Of a stretch of DNA of 64,000 bases, positions 2,331-63,487 are shown in pieces. The position numbers and the translations under genes are program-made. A model generated the notes under the pieces. The model ran no database searches, had not been told where the DNA came from, and saw only the letters and a program-made list of their open reading frames with translations. The stretch's first letter is position 1. Each line of letters begins with the position of its first letter. The stretch comes from Branchiostoma floridae (Eukaryota > Chordata > Leptocardii > Amphioxiformes > Branchiostomatidae): the NCBI RefSeq assembly GCF_000003815.2, contig NC_049988.1:16621930-16685929 (forward strand), given 5' to 3'.

Positions 2331-2972
2331 AGACAAATCTTTATTGACACGACAAAAGCACAGCGGCTTTCGTAAGGTCTACATGTACAACAACTACTTA
2401 CAGTACAACTAAACACACATATATGGATATCTATAGGTATGAATAAATCAGCATATAGGGACTAGCATGTCATTTCTACGATATAGACATTCTTGAATAT
2501 ATTTGCCTACTTGTACACAGTGAGGATTATCGCCTCCCAGAATGTAGTTCAGTTTATCTATCGTACAAAGAGTAGCAAATTCTTTAGAGCAAGCGGAAAG
2601 TAATGTGAACAGCTCTGTGCGTTTGTCATTATAGAGAGAACAATCCATTACAAAGTGGCGTTCGTCTTCGATCTCATTTGGACAGAATGGACAAAACCTC
2701 TGGTCACGGGGAATTTTAGTATATCTTCCGGCTTCTATATTCAGTTTGTGACTACCGATTCTTATCTTTGTAATTGCTCTACGAAGTTCAAAACTGTGTA
2801 CACTTAAGAAGAACAAAGCTACATCCCGGCTATGGTGCAGTGCGGTTTCATCTGTCTCTTTTGTTTTTATAAATTGCACCCTTAACCAGCCGTGGCTAGT
2901 TGTAAGCACACATAGACAATTTGCTTGAGACGTGTAAGTTGCTGGGTCCCACCTGAGGGACCAATTTAACAA
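2330..2972 (-). mobile_element. Non-LTR retrotransposon, 3' fragment with ORF2 C-terminus
   Basis: A 174-codon minus-strand ORF (2448-2972) carries the C-terminal hallmark of many LINE ORF2 proteins: a segment reading RIGSHKLNIEAGRY..IPR followed by a CxFC...DErHF...C zinc-knuckle-like motif (residues ~92-132). No reverse transcriptase core is present, so the copy is 5'-truncated. About 105 bp downstream, near 2337-2342, an AATAAA sits on the minus strand. The family cannot be fixed without a database search; CR1/L2-like or Rex-like are possible. Confidence 0.7.
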
Positions 2973-3017
2973 GATTTTACTGAAAACAGTCGTTTTGAGG
3001 ATTTCTTAAACCTCCAA

Positions 3018-3440
3018 TTCATCATAAAGACTGGTGTTTTTTCTCATACTGCTTTAAACTGACTCAAAAATAAAACCCAATTGCTAAGATTTGTTTTGAG
3101 AACAATTCATCATTTTAAGGGTCACGGATTTCCGATCAAGGGACTTGAAATTTTACGTCAATTCTGTTTTGTTGAGTCAGCAGTACAAAGCAAATTGAGG
3201 AAAGTGGGACACAAACTTACGGGTTTTCGGTTCATCATAGTGTTTTTTTCTCATACTCGAAAATGAAACCCTATTGCTAAGACTTATTCTGTTTGGGAAC
3301 AATTCATCATTTTAAGGGTTACGGATTTCAGATCAAACTTAGAATTGTACTTTTATTCTGTTTTGTTGGACAGCAGTACAAAGCAAATTGATGAAAGATT
3401 GGGACAGACATACGCACACGAACATCCGGGTTTTCGGAAT
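3018..3440. repeat. Tandem duplication, unit ~195 bp, two copies
   Basis: The first unit (CATCATAAAGACTGG... TTGCTAAGATT... AACAATTCATCATTTTAAGG... CAGCAGTACAAAGCAAATTG... GGGTTTTCGG) is repeated with ~15 percent differences from about 3231. No coding potential. Confidence 0.65.
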
Positions 3441-36489: not shown

Positions 36490-37560
36490 GTATTGGCGAC
36501 AGAGTAGTTTTCAAGGCAAATGCACTGTGACATGTTTCTCTGTTAAGCTACGTGGCTACGAGAGGGGGCATTGGTGACAGAGAAGTTTTGAAGGAGAATG
36601 ATATAGCGCTCACTCACTGTGACATGTTTCCCTGTTAAGTTACGTAGCTAACATAGGGAGTATTGGTGACAGAGAAGTTTTGAAGGAGAATGATATAGCG
36701 CTCACTCACTGTGACATGTTTCCCTGTTAAGTTACGTAGCTAACATAGGGAGTATTGGTGACAGAGAAGTTTTGAAGGAGGATGATATAGCGCTCACTCA
36801 CTGTGACATGTTTCCCTGTTAAGATACGTAGCTAACATAGGGAGTATTGGTGACAGAGAAGTTTTGAAGGAGAATGATATAGCGCTCACTCACTGTGACA
36901 TGTTTCCCTGTTAAGTTACGTAGCTAACATAGGGAGTATTGGTGACAGAGAAGTTTTGAAGGAGGATGATATAGCGCTCACTCACTGTGACATGTTTCCC
37001 TGTTAAGTTACGTAGCTAACATAGGGAGTATTGGTGACAGAGAAGTTTTGAAGGAGAATGATATAGCGCTCACTCACTGTGACATGTTTCCCTGTTAAGT
37101 TACGTAGCTAACATAGGGAGTATTGGTGACAGAGAAGTTTTGAAGGAGAATGATATAGCGCTCACTCACTGTGACATGTTTCCCTGTTAAGATACGTAGC
37201 TAAAATAGTCAGTATTGGTGACAGAGAAGTTTTGAAGGAGAATGATATAGCGCTCACTCACTGTGACATGTTTCCCTGTTAAGTTACGTAGCTAACATAG
37301 GGAGTATTGGTGACAGAGAAGTTTTGAAGGAGGATGATATAGCGCTCACTCACTGTGACATGTTTCCCTGTTAAGTTACGTAGCTAACATAGGGAGTATT
37401 GGTGACAGAGAAGTTTTGAAGGAGAATGATAAAGCGCTCACTCACTGTGACATGTTTCCCTGTTAAGATACGTAGCTAGAGCATGGGTTATTGGCGGCAG
37501 AAAAGTTTTAAATGAGAATACCAATATCGTACACTCACTTTGACATACACTAACAGTTCC
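36490..37560. repeat. 92-bp minisatellite, ~10 regular units plus degenerate ends
   Basis: TTGGTGACAGAGAAGTTTTG starts units at 36571, 36663, 36755, 36847, 36939, 37031, 37123, 37215, 37307 and 37399, exactly 92 bp apart. Diverged edge units lie at 36493 and 37491. Units differ at a few sites: GGAGAATGA or GGAGGATGA, GTTAAGTTACG or GTTAAGATACG, and CATAGGGAG against AATAGTCAG in unit 7. Located in intron 1 of gene A. Confidence 0.95.
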
Positions 37561-38289: not shown

Positions 38290-39100
38290 TTCTTATACCT
38301 GGATGGAGCGAACAAAGTGCCTTCTCCAAGAGCACAAATCGCGTGACGGACTCTGAACCGAAAATTTATGAGTTCTAGGCCAGGCCAAGTACCCTGTAGC
38401 TAAAACACACTCTAGTAAAAGGAGAGAAAAAAGACCAAAAAACCTACATAATCCTTCACCAAGATGGAGCAAAGAAAGTGCCTTCTCCAAGAGCACATGT
38501 ACAAATCGGTAGCGTGGCGGACTTTGAACCGAGGATCTATGAGTTCTCGGCCAGGCCAAGTACCCTGCAGTATCGATATCAAGAAGACGGTTCTCCTTCT
38601 CCTTCTAACACCGTCTTTTATCTCAGTCAGATACACGTTCTTACACCTAGATAGAACGAAGAAAGTGCCCTCTCCAAGAGCACAAATCGGTAGCGTGACG
38701 GACTTTGAACCGAAAATCTATGGGTTCTAGGCGGGCCAAGTACCGTACAGTTACACCACACTCTAGTAAAAGGAGAGAAAAAAGACAACGAAAACCTACA
38801 TATTTTTACACCTAGATGGAGCGAAGAAAGTATCTTCTCCAAAAGCACAAATCGGTAGCGTGACGGACTTTGAACCGAAAATCTATGATTTCTAGGCCAG
38901 GCCAAATATTTTCATATAATTTACACATGTATGAAGTACAATGTCTAAAATGCACAATTCAACATCTTCTTCTGTGAAGAAGTAGCTGCGATGTATTTTA
39001 CTGTTCCCCGACTGAATCAATAAACCAATCTTATCTTAAGTACCCTGCAGTTAAAACACACTGTAGTAAAAGGAGAGAAAAAAAAAAAAACGAAAACTTA
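38290..39100. repeat. SINE-derived tandem array beside gene A exon 1
   Basis: ATGGAGCGAA or variant begins units at 38302, 38464, 38651 and 38816 (spacings 162, 187, 165). Each carries GTGCCTTCTCCAAGAGCACA AATCG, GACGGACTTTGAACCGA and GGCCAGGCCAAGTACC. Two inter-unit stretches (38405-38455, 38768-38805) read AAAAGGAGAGAAAAAAGAC then CAAAAAACCTACAT, the same as the first bases of intron 1 next to exon 1. A last piece lies at 39046-39090. Confidence 0.75.
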
Positions 39101-39150
39101 CCGGTAAACCATGAAGAGGAAAGGAGAAAAAAGACCAAAAAGAAAACCTA
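39101..39150 (-). other. 50-bp duplication of exon 1 end and splice donor
   Basis: CCGGTAAACCATGAAGA (the last bases of exon 1 in reverse) occurs at both 39101 and 39151. This gives two candidate donors: TACCG|GTAGGT at 39152/39151 and TACCG|GTAAGT at 39102/39101. The distal one has the better consensus, but reading through to it meets an in-frame TAG immediately after the proximal site. Confidence 0.8.
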
Positions 39151-39151
39151 C

Positions 39152-39357
39152 CGGTAAACCATGAAGATCACAAAAGCATTCCCAGCCGCGCCGACGAGGC
39201 AGATGACTGCAAAGATAGCCGGGACGATGTCGGCTTCTGGCCCCAGGGACGGCTCGCCCCCCGGGTCCGTCGCGTTCGGAGTCTCGGTGGAGGAGAACCA
39301 TCCGCCCGTATACGTAGTGGCGAAGTCGCCGGTGGGGTAAGGTGTGACGGCATCCAT
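39152..39357 (-). CDS. Gene A exon 1: N-terminus and TM1
   Basis: Starts at ATG 39357-39355 in strong Kozak context (A at -3, G at +4). 68 codons plus two bases of Arg. No cleavable signal peptide. The extracellular N-terminus of ~43 residues is rich in Thr, Pro and Gly with one N-glycosylation site (NAT at residue 28). TM1 spans about 44-66 (DIVPAIFAVICLVGAAGNAF) with the GN motif of class A receptors, followed by VIFMVYR. Donor TACCG|GTAGGT, phase 2, matching exon 2. Downstream donor duplication is listed separately. Confidence 0.9.
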
Positions 39358-55365: not shown

Positions 55366-55600
55366 CTTATAACATCACAAAACCCACACATAATAGAAAA
55401 AGTGGGATCTTTCGTCTTCCACTGTCTTCAAAAAAGGAGTCGAACCCAATAGCCCAGGACCAAGAGTTAGCTTTTACTAGTTTTAGACTAAAGTAGACAC
55501 TTGTGATATTGTATATCACACTGTTTGAATCTTTTATGTTAACTGCAATTAGCCCAAGGGCAAGAATTTGCAATAAACTTGATCTATTCATTCATACCGA
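55366..55600 (+). mobile_element. Non-LTR retrotransposon 3' end, copy 2
   Basis: Inverse match to 30889-31112. Ends GGCAAGAATTTGCAATAAAC TTGATCTATTCATTC, i.e. poly-A-like signal plus a short ATTC tail. The last bases overlap the final codons and stop of gene B on the other strand. Confidence 0.7.
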
Positions 55601-55749
55601 TCTCCTCCTTCGTGTTTTTGGCCATCCTGGGTCCGACGGCCGAGCCCGCCGTGTAGGAGTTCCCCTCTCGGAACGACTTGTTGAAGGCCTTCCTGAAGCT
55701 GTCCCCCATGATGCCATAGACGAAGGGGTTGACGCAGGAGTTGGCGTAG
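55584..55749 (-). CDS. Gene B terminal exon: TM7 and C-terminal tail
   Basis: 166 bp. Acceptor ATTCATTCAG|CTACGC; the first C completes a Ser codon (AG|C) from the TM6 exon, giving LCLSYANSCVNPFVYGIMGD. NPxxY is intact (NPFVY) and helix 8 reads SFRKAFNKSF without the two Cys of gene A. The tail is only ~30 residues (gene A ~65), ending KNTKEEIGMNE and TAG. The last three codons and stop fall in the ATTC tail of a retroelement, so the original C-terminus may have been longer. Confidence 0.88.
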
Positions 55750-56104
55750 CTGAATGAATGAATGAATGGTTTATTTGACATAGAGACATAGAAATTACAA
55801 ACAAGACATCACACTTACAGTCACTATAGTATGACTGAATTGCGGTGAATATTTACAATTATCACGCACACTACAACACGGTATACAAGGTTTAAAAGTG
55901 AGAAATTGTCGCAATGTTGTTTAAAATAAGATTAAAAACTAATAAGGTAAAGGATAATTATCATATTGCACTTTAAAGTATTGCACGTCAATATTGCACG
56001 AGAAGAGAAATACAAAACACTGTACATCTGATTCATCAATTGGGATTTCTATGCAAATATCAATTAACACCAGTACTGTAATGCAAGTTCGCAAGATGCA
56101 CAAC
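55750..56104 (-). mobile_element. Gene B TM6/TM7 intron, retroelement-like 3' end
   Basis: 355-bp intron, donor CTCAG|GTTGTG, acceptor CATTCATTCAG. Read on the minus strand, its end is TTTGTAATTTCTATGTCTCT ATGTCAAATAAACC then (ATTC)4, the layout of a CR1/L2-type 3' end. The upstream part repeats GTGCAATATTGACGTGCAAT. TCAG occurs at both exon junctions, as a short target duplication would. Gene A has no intron here. Confidence 0.6.
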
Positions 56105-56259
56105 CTGAGGCACAGGGCGGCGATCTTGAGCCACATGACCACGGGACCGAACCCGCCGGACAGGTCCGCCCGTTTGAAGGACCACCAGAGGTTCGCAGCG
56201 TGGTTCGGGGCCCAGCACAGGGCGAACAGGATCACAACTGTGGCCACCATACGCGTCAC
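56105..56259 (-). CDS. Gene B exon: TM6, ECL3, start of TM7
   Basis: 51 codons plus AG. Acceptor CCTACAG|GTGACG, phase 0; donor phase 2. VTRMVATVVILFALCWAPNH has the canonical C-W-x-P of TM6. ECL3 reads FKRADLSGGFGP, and TM7 begins WLKIAALCL. Aligns without gaps to the first part of the gene A terminal exon apart from ECL3 length. Confidence 0.92.
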
Positions 56260-56657: not shown

Positions 56658-56917
56658 CCGCTTTTTCCTGGCCAGGACGTGCTGCTGCGCGACTGACGTG
56701 TTTCCGGCCATGGTTGCCAGGTAACGGAGAATGAGGCAGTGGCTCACCACGCTGGTGGTCAGGGGGATGACGTAGCTGATCAGGACGGTGTAGATGATGT
56801 AGACCCGGTACTCATCCTCCGATGGGAACTCCTCCATGCAGAAGAACTTACGGCCGTACCAGTCCTGCTCCGAGACTTCCATGAAGAAGGCGATGGGGAG
56901 GGACAACAGGAACGAAC
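56658..56917 (-). CDS. Gene B exon: end of TM4, ECL2, TM5, ICL3
   Basis: 260 bp, 86 codons after a phase-1 junction. Acceptor CCTCAAG|GTTCG, donor AAGCGG|GTGAGA. GSFLLSLPIAF (end of TM4); ECL2 with QDWYGRKFFCMEEFPS (disulfide Cys; C.E.FPS as in KISS1R); TM5 VYIIYTVLISYVIPLTTSVV; ICL3 ends VLARKKR. The first ~90 bp exist in about eight partial copies upstream. This is the only copy that continues into TM5. Confidence 0.93.
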
Positions 56918-56989
56918 CTTGAGGAACACATTCATGGCAGTTAGAAAAATAAATGAACTTTTGCTGCAGTACCGTAGGAAGCCGCAGCT

Positions 56990-58130
56990 CGGCCTCCATG
57001 CAGAAGAACTTGCGGCCGTACCAGTCCCGCTCAGAGACCTCCATGAAGAAGGCGATGAGGAGGGACAACAGGAACGAACCTTGAGGAACACATTCATGAG
57101 AGTTAAGAAAGACAAATTGCAAGTTTTGCAGCAGTACCGTAGGAAGCCGCAGCTCGGCCTCCATGCAGAAGAACTTGCGGCCGTACCAATCCCGCTCAGA
57201 GACCTCCATGAAGAAGGCGATGGGGAGGGACAGCAGGAACTAACCTTGGGGAACACATTCATGGCAGTTAGAAAAAAATAATGTATATTGCTGCAGTACC
57301 TCAGAATACAATACAGACATATCCAGCCTCGCTCGCTCTGACACCTCCATGAAGAAGGCGATGGGGAGGGACAGCAGGAACGAACCTTGGGCAACACATT
57401 CATGACAGTTAGAAAAATAAATGAAGTTTTGCTGCAGTACCGTAGGAAGCCGCAGCTCGGCCTCAATGCAGAAGAACTTGCGGCCGTACCAGTCTCGCTC
57501 AGAGACCTCCACGAAGAAGGCGATGGGAAGAGACAGCAGAAACGAATCTTGGGGAACACATTCATGAGAGTTAAGAAAGACAAATTGCAAGTTTTGCAGC
57601 AGTACCGTAGGAAGCCGCAGCTCGGCCTCCATGCAGAAGAACTTGCGGCCGTACCAGTCCCGCTCAGACACCTCCATGAAGAATGGGGAGAGAAAACAGT
57701 AACGAACCTTGAGGAACACATTTCTGATAGTTAGGAAAGACATTGAAGTTTTGCTGCAGTACCGTAGGAAGCCGCAGCTCGGCCTCTATACAGAAGAACT
57801 TGCGGCCGTACCAGTCTCGCTCAGAGACCTCCATGAAGAAGGCAATGGGGAGGGACAACAGGAACGAACCTTGGGGAACACATTCATGACAGTTAGGAAA
57901 TAAATGAAGTTTTGCTGCAGTACCGTAGGAAGCCGCAGCTCCGCCTCCATGCAGAAGAACTTACGGCCGTACCAGTCCCGGGTTCATGACAGTTAGAGAA
58001 AATCTATATTGAGGAAAGACAGACGTGAACGTTTATGGATGCGATCACCCGCAATACAGATATATCATCCATGAAGAAGGCGATAGGAAGGGACAACAGG
58101 AACGAACATTGGGGAACACATTAATGATAT
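56990..58130 (-). repeat. Tandem array of partial ECL2-exon copies
   Basis: Copies of the exon 5' part, each with its acceptor-side intron end, begin (minus strand) at 57079, 57244, 57385, 57547, 57707, 57869 and 58117. A truncated copy without its start lies at 57950-57980. Most encode SFLLSLPIAFFMEVSERDWY GRKFFCME, then diverge into AELRLPTVL and run into the next intron-end piece. Spacings are 162, 165, 141, 162, 160, 162 and 248. Frame stays open across several copies, including into the functional exon. Lesions: a TAG right after the acceptor of the 57244 copy, AG|AT for AG|GT at 57547, a small deletion at 57707, loss of WYG in the 57385 and 58117 copies. Confidence 0.9.
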
Positions 58131-58134
58131 TAGG

Positions 58135-58810
58135 AAAAAAATCTGTTGAACAAAAGACAGAACATTCATGAATGCAATTACCCACAAAACAGACATAACA
58201 TTACCAATGACAAAATCTGAGACTTTCATTTTATTTACGCCATGTCCTGATGCAAGTTTTCTTGTCAAAAGGCAAAAAGCTACTATTCTGACAACTGAAA
58301 TTATCAAGAAAGTCCGTGTTCAGTCCGTCTGGGGTCCAAAAGGACGCCAGCAAAAAAGTGCAGTTTTTAAAACAAACTTTTGACACTAACTCCTTAATTA
58401 CTTATCGTATCACTACCAAACTTTCAGAGGATGATAAATATGTAAAACTAATATAATATCACAAAGTTTTGTAGCTTTAGCACTAGCCATTCATGAGTTA
58501 TGCGACCTAAACCTTGCTGAGGGCCTCAAAATTCCCCTCTCTGGTCAGAATAGGTTTAGTGCAAAACGTGGTCCCTCTGATCTTTTGCATAAATTATGAT
58601 GATGAGCTGGAATTTGCAACACTTTAACATGTCAAAATATTCCTCTTACATTGACGAAGCAATGTATGTACAATGATGACCGATAGGAATTGGAACTGTC
58701 ATTTTATGAACAAAACATTTTGGGGTCCGTTTGGACCCCACTCGGTCATTTTAGTCGCAAAAAAAGGTCGGGTGCTTGAGGGTTAACGCCTCATAGAGAT
58801 GACCTTGTAC
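58135..58810. other. Gene B intron; piggyBac-like MITE end
   Basis: 58723-58782 reads TGGGGTCCGTTTGGACCCCA ... CGGGTGCTTGAGGGTTAA, with the inverse motif GGGGTCCAAAAGGAC at 58331. A terminus GGGTTAA is what a piggyBac-type element (CCCT... with TTAA target) would leave. The other end was not located. Confidence 0.35.
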
Positions 58811-58814
58811 TCAC

Positions 58815-58950
58815 CTATCCAGATGATGGCTGTTGTAATACCCACGCCTACAGGTGTTCGGAACCAGGGGGTCTGGAAGGGTTTGACGATAGCCCAGAAC
58901 CGGTCCAGACTCAGCACCGCCAGCGTCATGCACGTGGCCTGCGCCGTGAC
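58815..58950 (-). CDS. Gene B exon: TM3, ICL2, TM4
   Basis: 136 bp, 45 codons plus G. Acceptor GTTCCAG|GTCACG, phase 0; donor GGATAG|GTGAGT, phase 1. VTAQATCMTLAVLSLDRFWA: TM3 with the DRY box as DRF, followed by IVKPF (ICL2 with the conserved Pro). TM4 is VGVGITTAIIWI with the conserved Trp. QATC..L..LS.DR is typical of the kisspeptin/galanin/allatostatin-A receptor group. The equivalent exon is missing from gene A. Confidence 0.93.
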
Positions 58951-59828: not shown

Positions 59829-62800
59829 GAGCGAATGTCTGTAAGGGTCAAACAATGGTGGCAGGGGTCAAAAAATAGATTTGGCTCATATTTTGCACAG
59901 TGATAGTACTTGGTACACAACCCCTGAAAATAGCTTTCTTTCTGCTCAGAACCTCTCGTTGCCATGGCAACAGGCCAAAGAAGTTTATGGGCCATTTTTC
60001 CAGATTTTGGCATGTAAAAAACATGAAAATTGACCAACTTAAGGGCACTAATGCTGATCAATGCTTTAACTTAACAACAAAAGCAGAATGTGATGATTAG
60101 AGCAATGCCTAAACTTGCATTAAATAGCAGTAAAGTCAATCTTCTGTAAAATCTATGGTTATGGGCAACCTGAATACAATACACTGTTTTCACGTTGTGA
60201 AAAAACTGAAATTTTGCCCAACTTTGAAGCACTGAAAGTCCGTAAGTGTAAAGATTTTTCGCTTGCAATTCACACCAAATAATAACCCACTAAAGAGCTA
60301 TTAGACAAATGCTTGCAAAGTTTGGGTTCTTGTTTTGTTGCTACGCAATCGTCCTTCAAAGTGGGTCAATTTTCATGATTTCGATAATATGTCATTATAT
60401 GCCATCTTTGCACAATCATCACTTCCAAGCCAAACTTGTCCTGTTATTGAAATTTATATGGAGAATAAACCAATATATTGTCTATGAAGTGCATGCTTGT
60501 AAACGTTGGGTTCTTGTTTTGTTGCTCCGCAATTGTCCTTTAAAGTGGGTCAATTTTGATGATTTTGACAAAATGTCACTTTGTGCTATTTTCTAACTAT
60601 TGTACGCTCCAAACCACACGTGTTCTGTAATTGGAATTTACTTGAAAGGTAAACCAATATACCGGCTATGAAATGCATACTTTTAAAGACTAAATTCTTG
60701 TTTTCTTGCTACGCAATTGTCCTTTAAAGTGGGTCAATTTTCATGATTTTGAAGATATGTCATTTAGTAACATCTTTGCACAATCATAACTTCCAAACCA
60801 AACTTGTTCTGTAATTGAAATTTACTTGGAATATAAACCAATATATTGTTTATCAAAGGCACGCTTGTGAAGTCTGGGTTCTTGTTTTGTTGGTACACAA
60901 TTGTCCTTTAATATAGGTCAATTTTCATGATTGTGCTAATATGTAATTTTCATTTGTGCAATCCTTGCACAATCATAACTTCCGAACCATGACTTGTTAT
61001 GTAACTGAAAGCTACTTGAATGATAAACCAATATATTGTCTACCAAATGCATGATTATGCACAGTTGGGGTTCTTGTATTCTAGCAGAGTATGTACACAT
61101 CCCAATAAGTAGGTCGTACTCTGCATTTATAAAAAAAATTGTTTTTGACAACAGTTTTGACACATGGTGCAGTCAGCATTTGTGGAAAAACCTTAAGAGT
61201 ACCCAAGTTCCTGCCCTTGCTCAAAATGAGTATGGTCCACAGTAGGGCTGGGTACCGGTACAGAAAATCCAGGTACAGGTCCGGTTCAGGTCCAGAGGAT
61301 TAGCTTTAGGTCCGGACCTGAACCTGGACCTGATACAGTATGACTCATACTAATAGTTTATTTCACTACAAAGAAATCTGTTTGGTGGAGTATTAGACTT
61401 ATACTGGCCTTTTAAAATCCTACAACGCAAACTGCACCTATACGATTGGCTGTAAAACTTGGTAGAAATTACAATAAACTCTACTCTACATCTCTCTTGT
61501 TATTTTCTTCCACCTGCAAGCGCCAAAACGTGTGAATGCCTGGTGAAATAATCTGTTCATTTTCTAATCGGTCCAACATCCGGTCCACCTAATTTTTTCA
61601 GGTCCGTTTTTTTCTGGACCGGTCCAATGAGAAAAAACGGTTTTGTACCGGTACGCTGTACCGATACTCAGCCCTAGTCCACAGACATTGCAGTAGTTGA
61701 CCAACATGTATGTTTGTCTTATATGTAAGCTACTATATATAGAAAGACACCCTGAGATTGGGGATATTTGTTCAAATGTGGAAACAAGTTAAGTCTTCAA
61801 AGGGTCCATACTGTGGGACGCAAACATAAGACTGTAGACTGTAGTCATACACAAGTATATACGTAGCGTGCGTATCTAGCTGCAGAGCTATCAGAATGTT
61901 TGGAAGTTCTAAGTGGATGCATCTTACACACCCTCCCATGCATGGCTAATCCCGCGGCATACGTAAGAGCCTTACGGTATCAGTAAAACATGTGTTTATG
62001 CCACTGGATGACCCCTGAAGGAAAGGGTGATCAGTGAAATTGAAGATGAGCACGACTTTTCGTAGAATCCCTACAAATGTTTTTGTTTTCTTTATGGTCA
62101 TTTTGTGTTTGCGCATTGTTATATTGTCTCTATAAAAACATAGACAGTGGCATGTTTATTACAGTAACTGTTTTCGACAACAAGATTTGTGGAGAAGTGT
62201 TAAATGCGACCTACTTCAGACATGTATATACTCTGCTAGAATACAAGGACCTGAAATGTGCAAGCATGCGTTTGATAGACAATATATTGGTTTATATCCC
62301 TTGTAAATTTTAATTACAGAACAAGTTTGGTTCAGAAGTTATGATTGTGCAATGATTGCACAAATGAAAATTACTTATTAGCACAATCATGAAAATTGAC
62401 CTATATTAAAGGACAATTGTGTACCAACAAAACAAGAACCCAGACTTTACAAGCATGCCTTTGATAAACAATATATTGGTTTATATTCCAAGTAAATTTC
62501 AATTACAGAACAAGTTTGGTTTGGAAGTTATGATTGTGCAAAGATGTTACTAAATGACATATCTTCAAAATCATGAAAATTGACCCACTTTAAAGGACAA
62601 TTGCGTAGCAAGAAAACAAGAATTTAGTCTTTACAAGTATGCATTTCATAGCCGGTATATTGGTTTACCTTTCAAGTAAATTCCAATTACAGAACACGTG
62701 TGGTTTGGAGCGTACAATAGTTAGAAAATAGCACAAAGTGACATTTTGTCAAAATCATCAAAATTGACCCACTTTAAAGGACAATTGCGGAGCAACAAAA

Positions 62801-63487
62801 CAAGAACCCAACGTTTACAAGCATGCACTTCATAGACAATATATTGGTTTATTCTCCATATAAATTTCAATAACAGGACAAGTTTGGTTTGGAAGTGATG
62901 ATTGTGCAAAGATGGCATATAATGACATATTATCGAAATCATGAAAATTGACCCACTTTGAAGGACGATTGCGTAGCAACAAAACAAGAACCCAAACTTT
63001 GCAAGCATTTGTCTAATAGCTCTTTAGTGGGTTATAATTCGGTGTGAATTGCAAGCGAAAAATCTTTACACTTACGGACTTTCAGTGCTTCAAAGTTGGG
63101 CAAAATTTCAGTTTTTTCACAACGTGAAAACAGTGTATTGTATTCAGGTTGCCCATAACCATAAATTTTACAGAAGATTGACTTTACTGCTAGTTAATGC
63201 AAGTTTAGGCATTGCTCTAATCATCACATTCTGCTTTTGTTGTTAAGTTAAAGCATTGATCAGTATTAGTGCCCTAAAGTTGGTCAATTTTCATGTTTTT
63301 ACATGCCAAAATCTGGAAAAATGGCCCATAAACTTCTTTGGCCTGTTGCCATGGCAACGAGAGGTTCTGAGCAGAAAGAAAGCTATTTTCAGGGGTTGTG
63401 TACCAAGTACTATCACTGTGCAAAATATGAGCCAAATCTATTTTTTGACCCCTGCCACCATTGTTTGACCCTTACAGACATTCGCTC
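59829..63487. mobile_element. 3.66-kb foldback with ~1.37-kb inverted arms, TTAA flanks
   Basis: Starts GAGCGAATGTCTGTAAGGGT and ends with the reverse complement; TTAA flanks both sides (59825-59828, 63488-63491). Arms run 59829 to ~61195 and ~62121 to 63487 with very few differences over the outer kilobase. Each arm contains four ~185-bp tandem units (left-arm starts 60311, 60496, 60680, 60864, partial at 61050; marker GGGTTCTTGTTTTGTTG). The ~925-bp centre holds a hAT MITE. No transposase. The identical 95-codon ORFs in the arms reflect repeat identity. Confidence 0.88.
61243..61676. mobile_element. hAT-type MITE with perfect 8-bp target duplication
   Basis: 434 bp; termini TAGGGCTGGGTACCGGTAC and GTACCGATACTCAGCCCTA. 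Direct repeats GTCCACAG at 61235-61242 and 61677-61684. The interior shares CAGGTCCGGTTCAGGTCCAG with 31340-31376 and the TCCGGACCTGAACC theme with 50993-51412. Confidence 0.92.

What the first reader, a model, noticed from the sequence alone, without database searches (positions are those of the whole stretch)
56990..58130. Array of about eight partial ECL2 exon copies upstream of the real exon in a GPCR
The first ~90 bp of the ECL2-TM5 exon plus its intron end is tandemly copied. Most copies keep an AG acceptor, the reading frame, the disulfide Cys and the WYGRKFFC motif; several spacings are multiples of three. A copy could be spliced to alter the ligand-binding second extracellular loop, or the copies could be decoy acceptors. 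Some lesions (a stop, AG|AT, a frameshifting deletion) show that not all are constrained.
Basis: seen in the sequence. Interest (0 to 1): 0.75.

Follow-up and report, generated by a model that had tools for sequence, protein, structure and literature searches.

The report
Stuttered splice site in lancelet receptor
In what is most likely a lancelet receptor gene, the point where an intron meets an exon has been copied in tandem about eight times; this kind of intron/exon "mirage" is already known in lancelets and is most likely harmless clutter that splicing ignores, not a set of alternative exons.

Summary
The array is real. On the minus strand, units of about 162 nt (intron end plus the first 87 nt of the TM5 exon) repeat between 58155 and the true exon edge at 56917: seven copies with an acceptor position (six keep AG), one without it, then the real exon. 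The host gene looks like a kisspeptin-type receptor (best PDB match, phase-0 and phase-1 introns). The genome is most likely Branchiostoma floridae: two globin arrays there fit published ones in position and period.

This is the lancelet "mirage" minisatellite, published for Adh, globin, TnC and PGBD5 genes; I file it as a new member of that kind. The proposed 107-nt mini-exon gives no full receptor from any of six copies. Reading through from a copy's acceptor keeps the frame for one of seven (57079). With junctions used as donors, four of six units stay in frame, so rare isoforms are not excluded. Changes in the copies' exon part are synonymous-biased, but so are those of a globin mirage, a kind whose published RT-PCR suggests regular splicing; I read the bias as inherited from the coding source. 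Six of seven unit junctions carry about 40 nt of a dispersed repeat. Duplicated exon edges recur in paralogues at about the local background rate.

The parts
58815..58950 (-). Gene B exon TM3-TM4, starts phase 0, ends phase 1 (G|gtgagt)
56658..56917 (-). Gene B real exon: end of TM4, ECL2, TM5; acceptor AAG|GT at 56918/56917
56105..56259 (-). Gene B TM6 exon
55587..55749 (-). Gene B TM7 exon, part covered by homology; its true 3' end was not settled
57998..58155 (-). Copy 1, most distal; exon-derived part starts 58107; AG changed to AT; homology to the exon ends about 58068
57907..57980 (-). Copy without acceptor: second part of the exon-derived stretch plus the unit tail
57756..57917 (-). Copy 2, acceptor AAG|GT at 57869, frame open, 162 nt to the next junction
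57596..57755 (-). Copy 3, acceptor at 57707, 5-nt deletion and stop
57434..57595 (-). Copy 4, acceptor at 57547 (AAG|AT), frame open
57293..57433 (-). Copy 5, acceptor at 57385, rearranged after about 53 nt, lacks WYGRKFFC
57128..57292 (-). Copy 6, acceptor at 57244, TAG at codon 2
56966..57127 (-). Copy 7, acceptor at 57079; the only copy acceptor whose read-through keeps the frame to the normal C-terminus (adds 54 aa)
56831..56965 (-). Real boundary as last unit of the array: 48 nt of intron end and 87 nt of exon shared with the copies
56946..56985 (-). About 40-nt fragment of a dispersed genomic repeat at the unit junction (also 57936-57898, 57775-57735, 57618-57582, 57453-57414, 57150-57114; the junction at 57300 keeps only a short piece)

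Best explanation
It is a lancelet 'mirage': a minisatellite that began as a tandem duplication across the acceptor of the TM4 intron of a kisspeptin-type receptor gene. Shown: the unit is intron end + 87 nt of exon + a tail that, at six of seven junctions, matches a dispersed repeat over about 40 nt; a two-unit block recurs 468 nt away, as unequal exchange would give; the paralogue most similar at this exon shows no copies of it. Inferred: the repeat fragment was filled in at the duplication junction by template switching; the array then grew and shrank by unequal crossing-over or slippage, with the real edge as its last member; splicing normally uses 56917 because only that acceptor starts an exon of ordinary size (260 nt) ending in a good donor (exon definition); the copies are neutral passengers, at most a source of rare aberrant transcripts.
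For: Array anatomy. [quoted passage not shown] PMC3902484 says the Adh and TnC mirages make no aberrant mRNAs (passages). Positive control: the same assembly has a 158-bp x 4.2 array at the acceptor of a globin exon (L065) and a copy 157 bp away at the end of another (L061), fitting BflGb6 and BflGb9 in position and period; their letters were not compared with published ones. Six of six GTACTG mini-exons and six of seven copy acceptors read through give no full receptor. In the exon-derived part, changes shared by two or more copies are synonymous 4 of 4; single-copy ones are 6 S, 7 N, 1 stop. In the intron-derived part variable sites are flat by codon position, 7:6:7. The globin mirage's copies show the same synonymous excess (8 of 11, expected share 0.23, p = 0.0006). 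The C17 paralogue (82% aa at this exon) has one TM5-exon match and no copy of its acceptor within 3.5 kb.
Against: No transcript was available; normal splicing is inferred from other genes. Synonymous changes in the copies' exon part exceed the random expectation (10 of 18, expected share 0.24, p = 0.004), which is also what constraint on the copies would give; the contrast with the intron part is not significant (11/16 against 7/20 third positions, Fisher p = 0.09). With the next junction as donor, four of six units are in-frame; AAG|GTTCGT, present at four of the six junctions, matches 7 of 9 donor positions. The real acceptor (AAG) is not better than those of the copies. PMC3902484 notes that a gene model (without cDNA support) counts repeats of the PGBD5 mirage as an exon of 57 residues.
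Confidence: 0.87

Rival explanations
1. Alternative in-frame exons. A unit bounded by its own acceptor and the next AG|GT junction used as donor is spliced in as a phase 1-1 cassette of 47-54 aa, adding a second TM4-end/ECL2 segment.
For: Four of six full units stay open to the normal C-terminus (one of them, 57079, is the same product as read-through); the AAG|GTTCGT junction matches 7 of 9 donor positions; synonymous excess in the exon part.
Against: The insert repeats part of TM4 and ECL2, an unlikely change for a working receptor (inference); an open founder is not rare (chance 0.31 that a 54-nt intron-derived part has no stop); the intron-derived part shows no codon pattern; a globin mirage shows the same excess and globin mirages are reported to splice regularly.
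Confidence: 0.06
2. Decoy or brake: the extra acceptor-like sites compete for splicing factors and lower or tune the output of the receptor mRNA, most choices ending in premature stops and decay.
For: Six of seven copies keep AG and sequences close to the real acceptor region; nearly all choices tested are non-productive.
Against: Selection for copy number or sites was not seen, but could hardly be tested with one haplotype; duplicated edges occur in this family about as often as local duplications elsewhere in the same loci (4 of 86 edges against 14 of 192 random windows).
Confidence: 0.05
3. Assembly artefact: the copies come from mis-joined haplotypes or reads.
Against: Copies differ from each other by substitutions, indels and sub-types; the same assembly carries globin arrays that fit published ones.
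Confidence: 0.02

Closest known systems
Lancelet "mirage" minisatellite of globin BflGb6 (PMC3087553, passages)
   Same: Tandem units of intron 3' end plus exon 5' part, 150-160 bp, 81-100% identical, many units with splice signals; a fitting array is present in the same genome (L065)
   Different: Here the gene is a kisspeptin-type receptor, there are eight extra copies (published BflGb6 haplotypes: 6 and 3), and most unit junctions contain a piece of a dispersed repeat; whether the globin unit has one was not tested (search unanswered)
Mirages of lancelet Adh3, TnC and PGBD5
   Same: Tandem repeats that cover a splice site
   Different: Different unit lengths (Adh3 10-72 bp as cited in PMC3087553; PGBD5 60 and 108 bp); seen only through passages of PMC3087553 and PMC3902484; the Adh paper itself was not held
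Arrays of tandem alternative exons (Dscam kind, recalled)
   Same: Repeated exon sequence inside an intron
   Different: Here the copies are partial exons, several are broken, and the exon could not be swapped because it carries TM5

Membership tests
Lancelet mirage minisatellite | Tandem repeats spanning an intron/exon boundary | tested here: met
Lancelet mirage minisatellite | Units carry splice signals (AG) in many, not all, copies | tested here: met
   AG in 6 of 7 copies with an acceptor position; one further copy lacks the acceptor
Lancelet mirage minisatellite | Occurs in a lancelet genome | tested here: met
   Indirect: two globin arrays fit published B. floridae ones in position and period (PMC3087553). 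Assembly size recalled as that of B. floridae; no species label was seen
Lancelet mirage minisatellite | Does not disturb regular splicing | not testable with these tools
   no RNA data
Lancelet mirage minisatellite | Length instability between haplotypes | not testable with these tools
   one haplotype held
Kisspeptin-type receptor (host gene) | Closest solved relative is KISS1R | tested here: met
   8xgo E 8.5e-28; galanin receptor 1 next at 3.3e-26, a narrow lead
Kisspeptin-type receptor (host gene) | Introns of phase 0 in TM3 and phase 1 in TM4 (PMC9400282) | tested here: met
   criterion from passages
Tandem alternative exons | Complete, interchangeable exons with acceptor and donor | tested here: not met
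   copies cover 87 of 260 nt and none of six mini-exons ending at GTACTG is productive

The most novel reading that the evidence does not exclude
The array is an exon nursery. Most junctions read AG|GT, so most units are phase 1-1 blocks bounded by sites that could serve as acceptor and donor at once; four of six are open. Some transcripts may carry such blocks, giving receptors with a doubled TM4-end/ECL2 segment, and the array would show the mirage route to new exons and introns, proposed for lancelet globins, in progress. The shared synonymous changes would then partly reflect selection on used copies.
Probability: 0.06. Interest if true: 0.7.

Novelty: new member of a known kind. Interest (0 to 1): 0.3.

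Why it matters
Mirages have been proposed as raw material for new introns and exons. This one is long, sits in a receptor gene with many paralogues to compare, and its units show what looks like a templated filler from a dispersed repeat, a clue to how such arrays may start. The synonymous bias in two separate mirages suggests that the functional exon is the recurrent source of the copies, so mirage copies could be mistaken for selected exons in genome annotation.

Tried and rejected
Rejected: the GTACTG mini-exon as a productive single cassette; read-through isoforms except from 57079; GTACTG as a strong donor (not decisive, since gene B's TM6 donor scores the same); synonymous excess as proof of use (controls); a special attraction of duplications to exon edges (4 of 86 against 14 of 192, Fisher p = 0.60; edges are ends of tblastn matches, not verified splice sites); the TM5-exon copies as shared with the paralogue most similar at this exon (none seen there).

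Dropped before counting: gene B's own copies and the extra TM7 copy in L054 as query edges, and matches that miss the rule of 15 nt on both sides of the edge (L045 acceptor, a second L053 copy, 23 nt at gene B's TM3 acceptor, gene B's TM7 match end). In the globin control, L064 also has a copy (79%) just past its match, and L067 and L068, both under the family cut-off, have arrays; these were not followed.

Led nowhere: the Adh mirage paper is not held. PMC4489612 (passages) gave nothing on intron positions in these receptors. A search whether the globin unit also holds a dispersed-repeat piece did not complete. One search counted 21 changes, including unreliable columns of copy 5; trims copy 5 after 53 nt and replaces it (18 changes). 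One search placed the end of the TM4 exon one base off; one search uses 58815. On checking the draft, the confidence of the best explanation went from 0.88 to 0.87 and the in-frame exon rival from 0.05 to 0.06, since the novel case and that rival are the same reading.

Full report
Observation. The minus strand between about 58155 and 56831 carries a tandem array. Its unit, about 162 nt, is the last 48 or so nt of an intron, the first 87 nt of an exon, and a short tail before the next intron end. BLAST of the real edge finds eight other places upstream: seven copies with an acceptor position, first exonic bases at 58107, 57869, 57707, 57547, 57385, 57244 and 57079, and one copy at 57980-57907 without acceptor. 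The real edge is at 56917. Units 2 to 8 are 72-94% identical to each other. A 300-nt block of about two units recurs 468 nt away at 94%, as unequal exchange gives.

Host gene. Exons at 58950-58815, 56917-56658, 56259-56105 and from 55749 give an open 238-aa reading from TM3 to past TM7; the true end of the last exon was not settled. Pfam calls it 7tm_1, E 2e-39. The best solved relatives are KISS1R chains (E 8.5e-28), with galanin receptor 1 close behind (3.3e-26). Introns of phase 0 at TM3 and phase 1 at TM4 are given as a mark of kisspeptin-type receptor genes that galanin-type genes lack (PMC9400282, passages), and this gene has both. The same passages say sixteen such receptors were identified in B. 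floridae. A TM2 exon that fits gene B lies outside the window, on the same strand (L056:8122-7943). The array sits at the acceptor of the phase-1 intron.

Genome. The window lies in an assembly of 513,431,437 bases in 431 contigs. I recall this as the size of the B. floridae assembly. Independent support: of 14 globin matches, 10 over the family cut-off, L065 has a 158-bp x 4.2 array ending in a globin exon and L061 a copy 157 bp away at 85%, as published for BflGb6 (150-160 bp) and BflGb9 (157 bp) (PMC3087553, passages). Letters were not compared with the published genes.

Known kind. [quoted passage not shown] PMC3902484 (passages) adds TnC and PGBD5, and tells of a gene model that counts PGBD5 repeats as an exon without cDNA support. 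These are the two papers I opened on the class, from searches; most other papers listed there were not opened, and I made no search that pairs mirages with kisspeptin receptors, so I make no claim that this array is unpublished.

Can a copy be used? Single mini-exons ending at GTACTG: six of six fail, by frame or stop. Extended exon from a copy's acceptor: one of seven (57079) reaches the normal C-terminus, adding 54 aa. Cassettes whose donor is the next junction: four of six stay in frame, one of them identical to the read-through product. The junction AAG|GTTCGT matches 7 of 9 donor positions, as many as gene B's TM5 donor, while ACG|GTACTG matches 5; four of the six junctions read AAG|GTTCGT, one AAG|GTTAGT, one AAG|ATTCGT. 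My account of why copies are passed over, exon definition, is inference: only 56917 begins an exon of usual length that ends in a good donor.

Constraint. In the exon-derived part of copies 2-7 there are 18 distinct changes: 10 synonymous, 7 non-synonymous, 1 stop; a random model with kappa 2 expects a synonymous share of 0.24, p = 0.004. Changes shared by copies are 4 of 4 synonymous; single-copy changes are 6 S, 7 N, 1 stop (p = 0.12). In the intron-derived part variable sites are spread 7:6:7 over the continued codon positions; the contrast with the exon part has p = 0.09. The globin mirage in L065 gives 9 S and 4 N among 13 changes, two of them private to the real exon; in its copies 8 of 11 are synonymous, expected share 0.23, p = 0.0006. 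I read the bias as inherited from the functional exon, which supplies or converts copies, followed by neutral decay. Constraint on the copies themselves is not excluded by these counts.

Origin. The tail GGCTTCCTACGGTACTGCAGCAAAACTTCATTT... is repeated in the genome: of the 38 matches of the array (a lower bound), one is the array itself, one a paralogous exon, and 36 fall on this piece. Six of these places, read with flanks, belong to one longer dispersed repeat; the array shares only about 40 nt with it, at six of seven unit junctions. A filler copied in at the first duplication junction would explain this; it is an inference.

How common. Among 18 loci of the family (16 chosen by me from the matches listed, plus genes A and B), 43 exon matches give 86 edges; 4 have a local copy spanning the edge by 15 nt on both sides: gene B, L039 (TM4 donor, about 40 nt), L053 (TM3 acceptor), L054 (TM7 acceptor). 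Random windows in the 16 fetched loci: 14 of 192; Fisher p = 0.60. The end of what I read as gene A's TM1 exon, outside that test, is doubled too. So there is no sign that edges are special targets; these loci carry many short local duplications, and some fall on edges.

Verdict. A long mirage in a kisspeptin-type receptor gene: a real feature, a new member of a known kind, probably neutral.

Noticed in passing
39069-39167: What I read as the TM1 exon of gene A (neighbouring receptor of the same family, minus strand; assigned by eye) has its end and donor doubled: TTTACCG|GTAGGT and, 50 nt on, TTTACCG|GTAAGT, a second mirage in the window.
   Followed up: partly
60309-61053 and 62261-63008: Inverted pair of arrays, each four 184-bp sub-repeats, upstream of gene B's TM3 exon; looks like a foldback-type element.
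   Followed up: no
56918-56920: The real TM5 acceptor is AAG, while the 11 other readable TM5 acceptors of the family printed end in CAG or TAG (a twelfth, L040, was not readable).
   Followed up: no
L054:2306-2493 and 2876-3059: One extra copy of the TM7 exon acceptor region in a paralogue, 79-82% identical.
   Followed up: partly
L065:954-1601: In the globin mirage, identity to the real edge falls with distance: 97, 93, 85%, as if new copies arise at the real exon.
   Followed up: no
36523-37519: A 92-bp x 10.8 array, 96% matches, not overlapping any of the eight exons I listed.
   Followed up: no
55750-56104: Gene B has an intron in TM7 (CTCAG|GTTGTG ... CAG|CTAC) that gene A lacks; its donor matches only 5 of 9 positions.
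   Followed up: no
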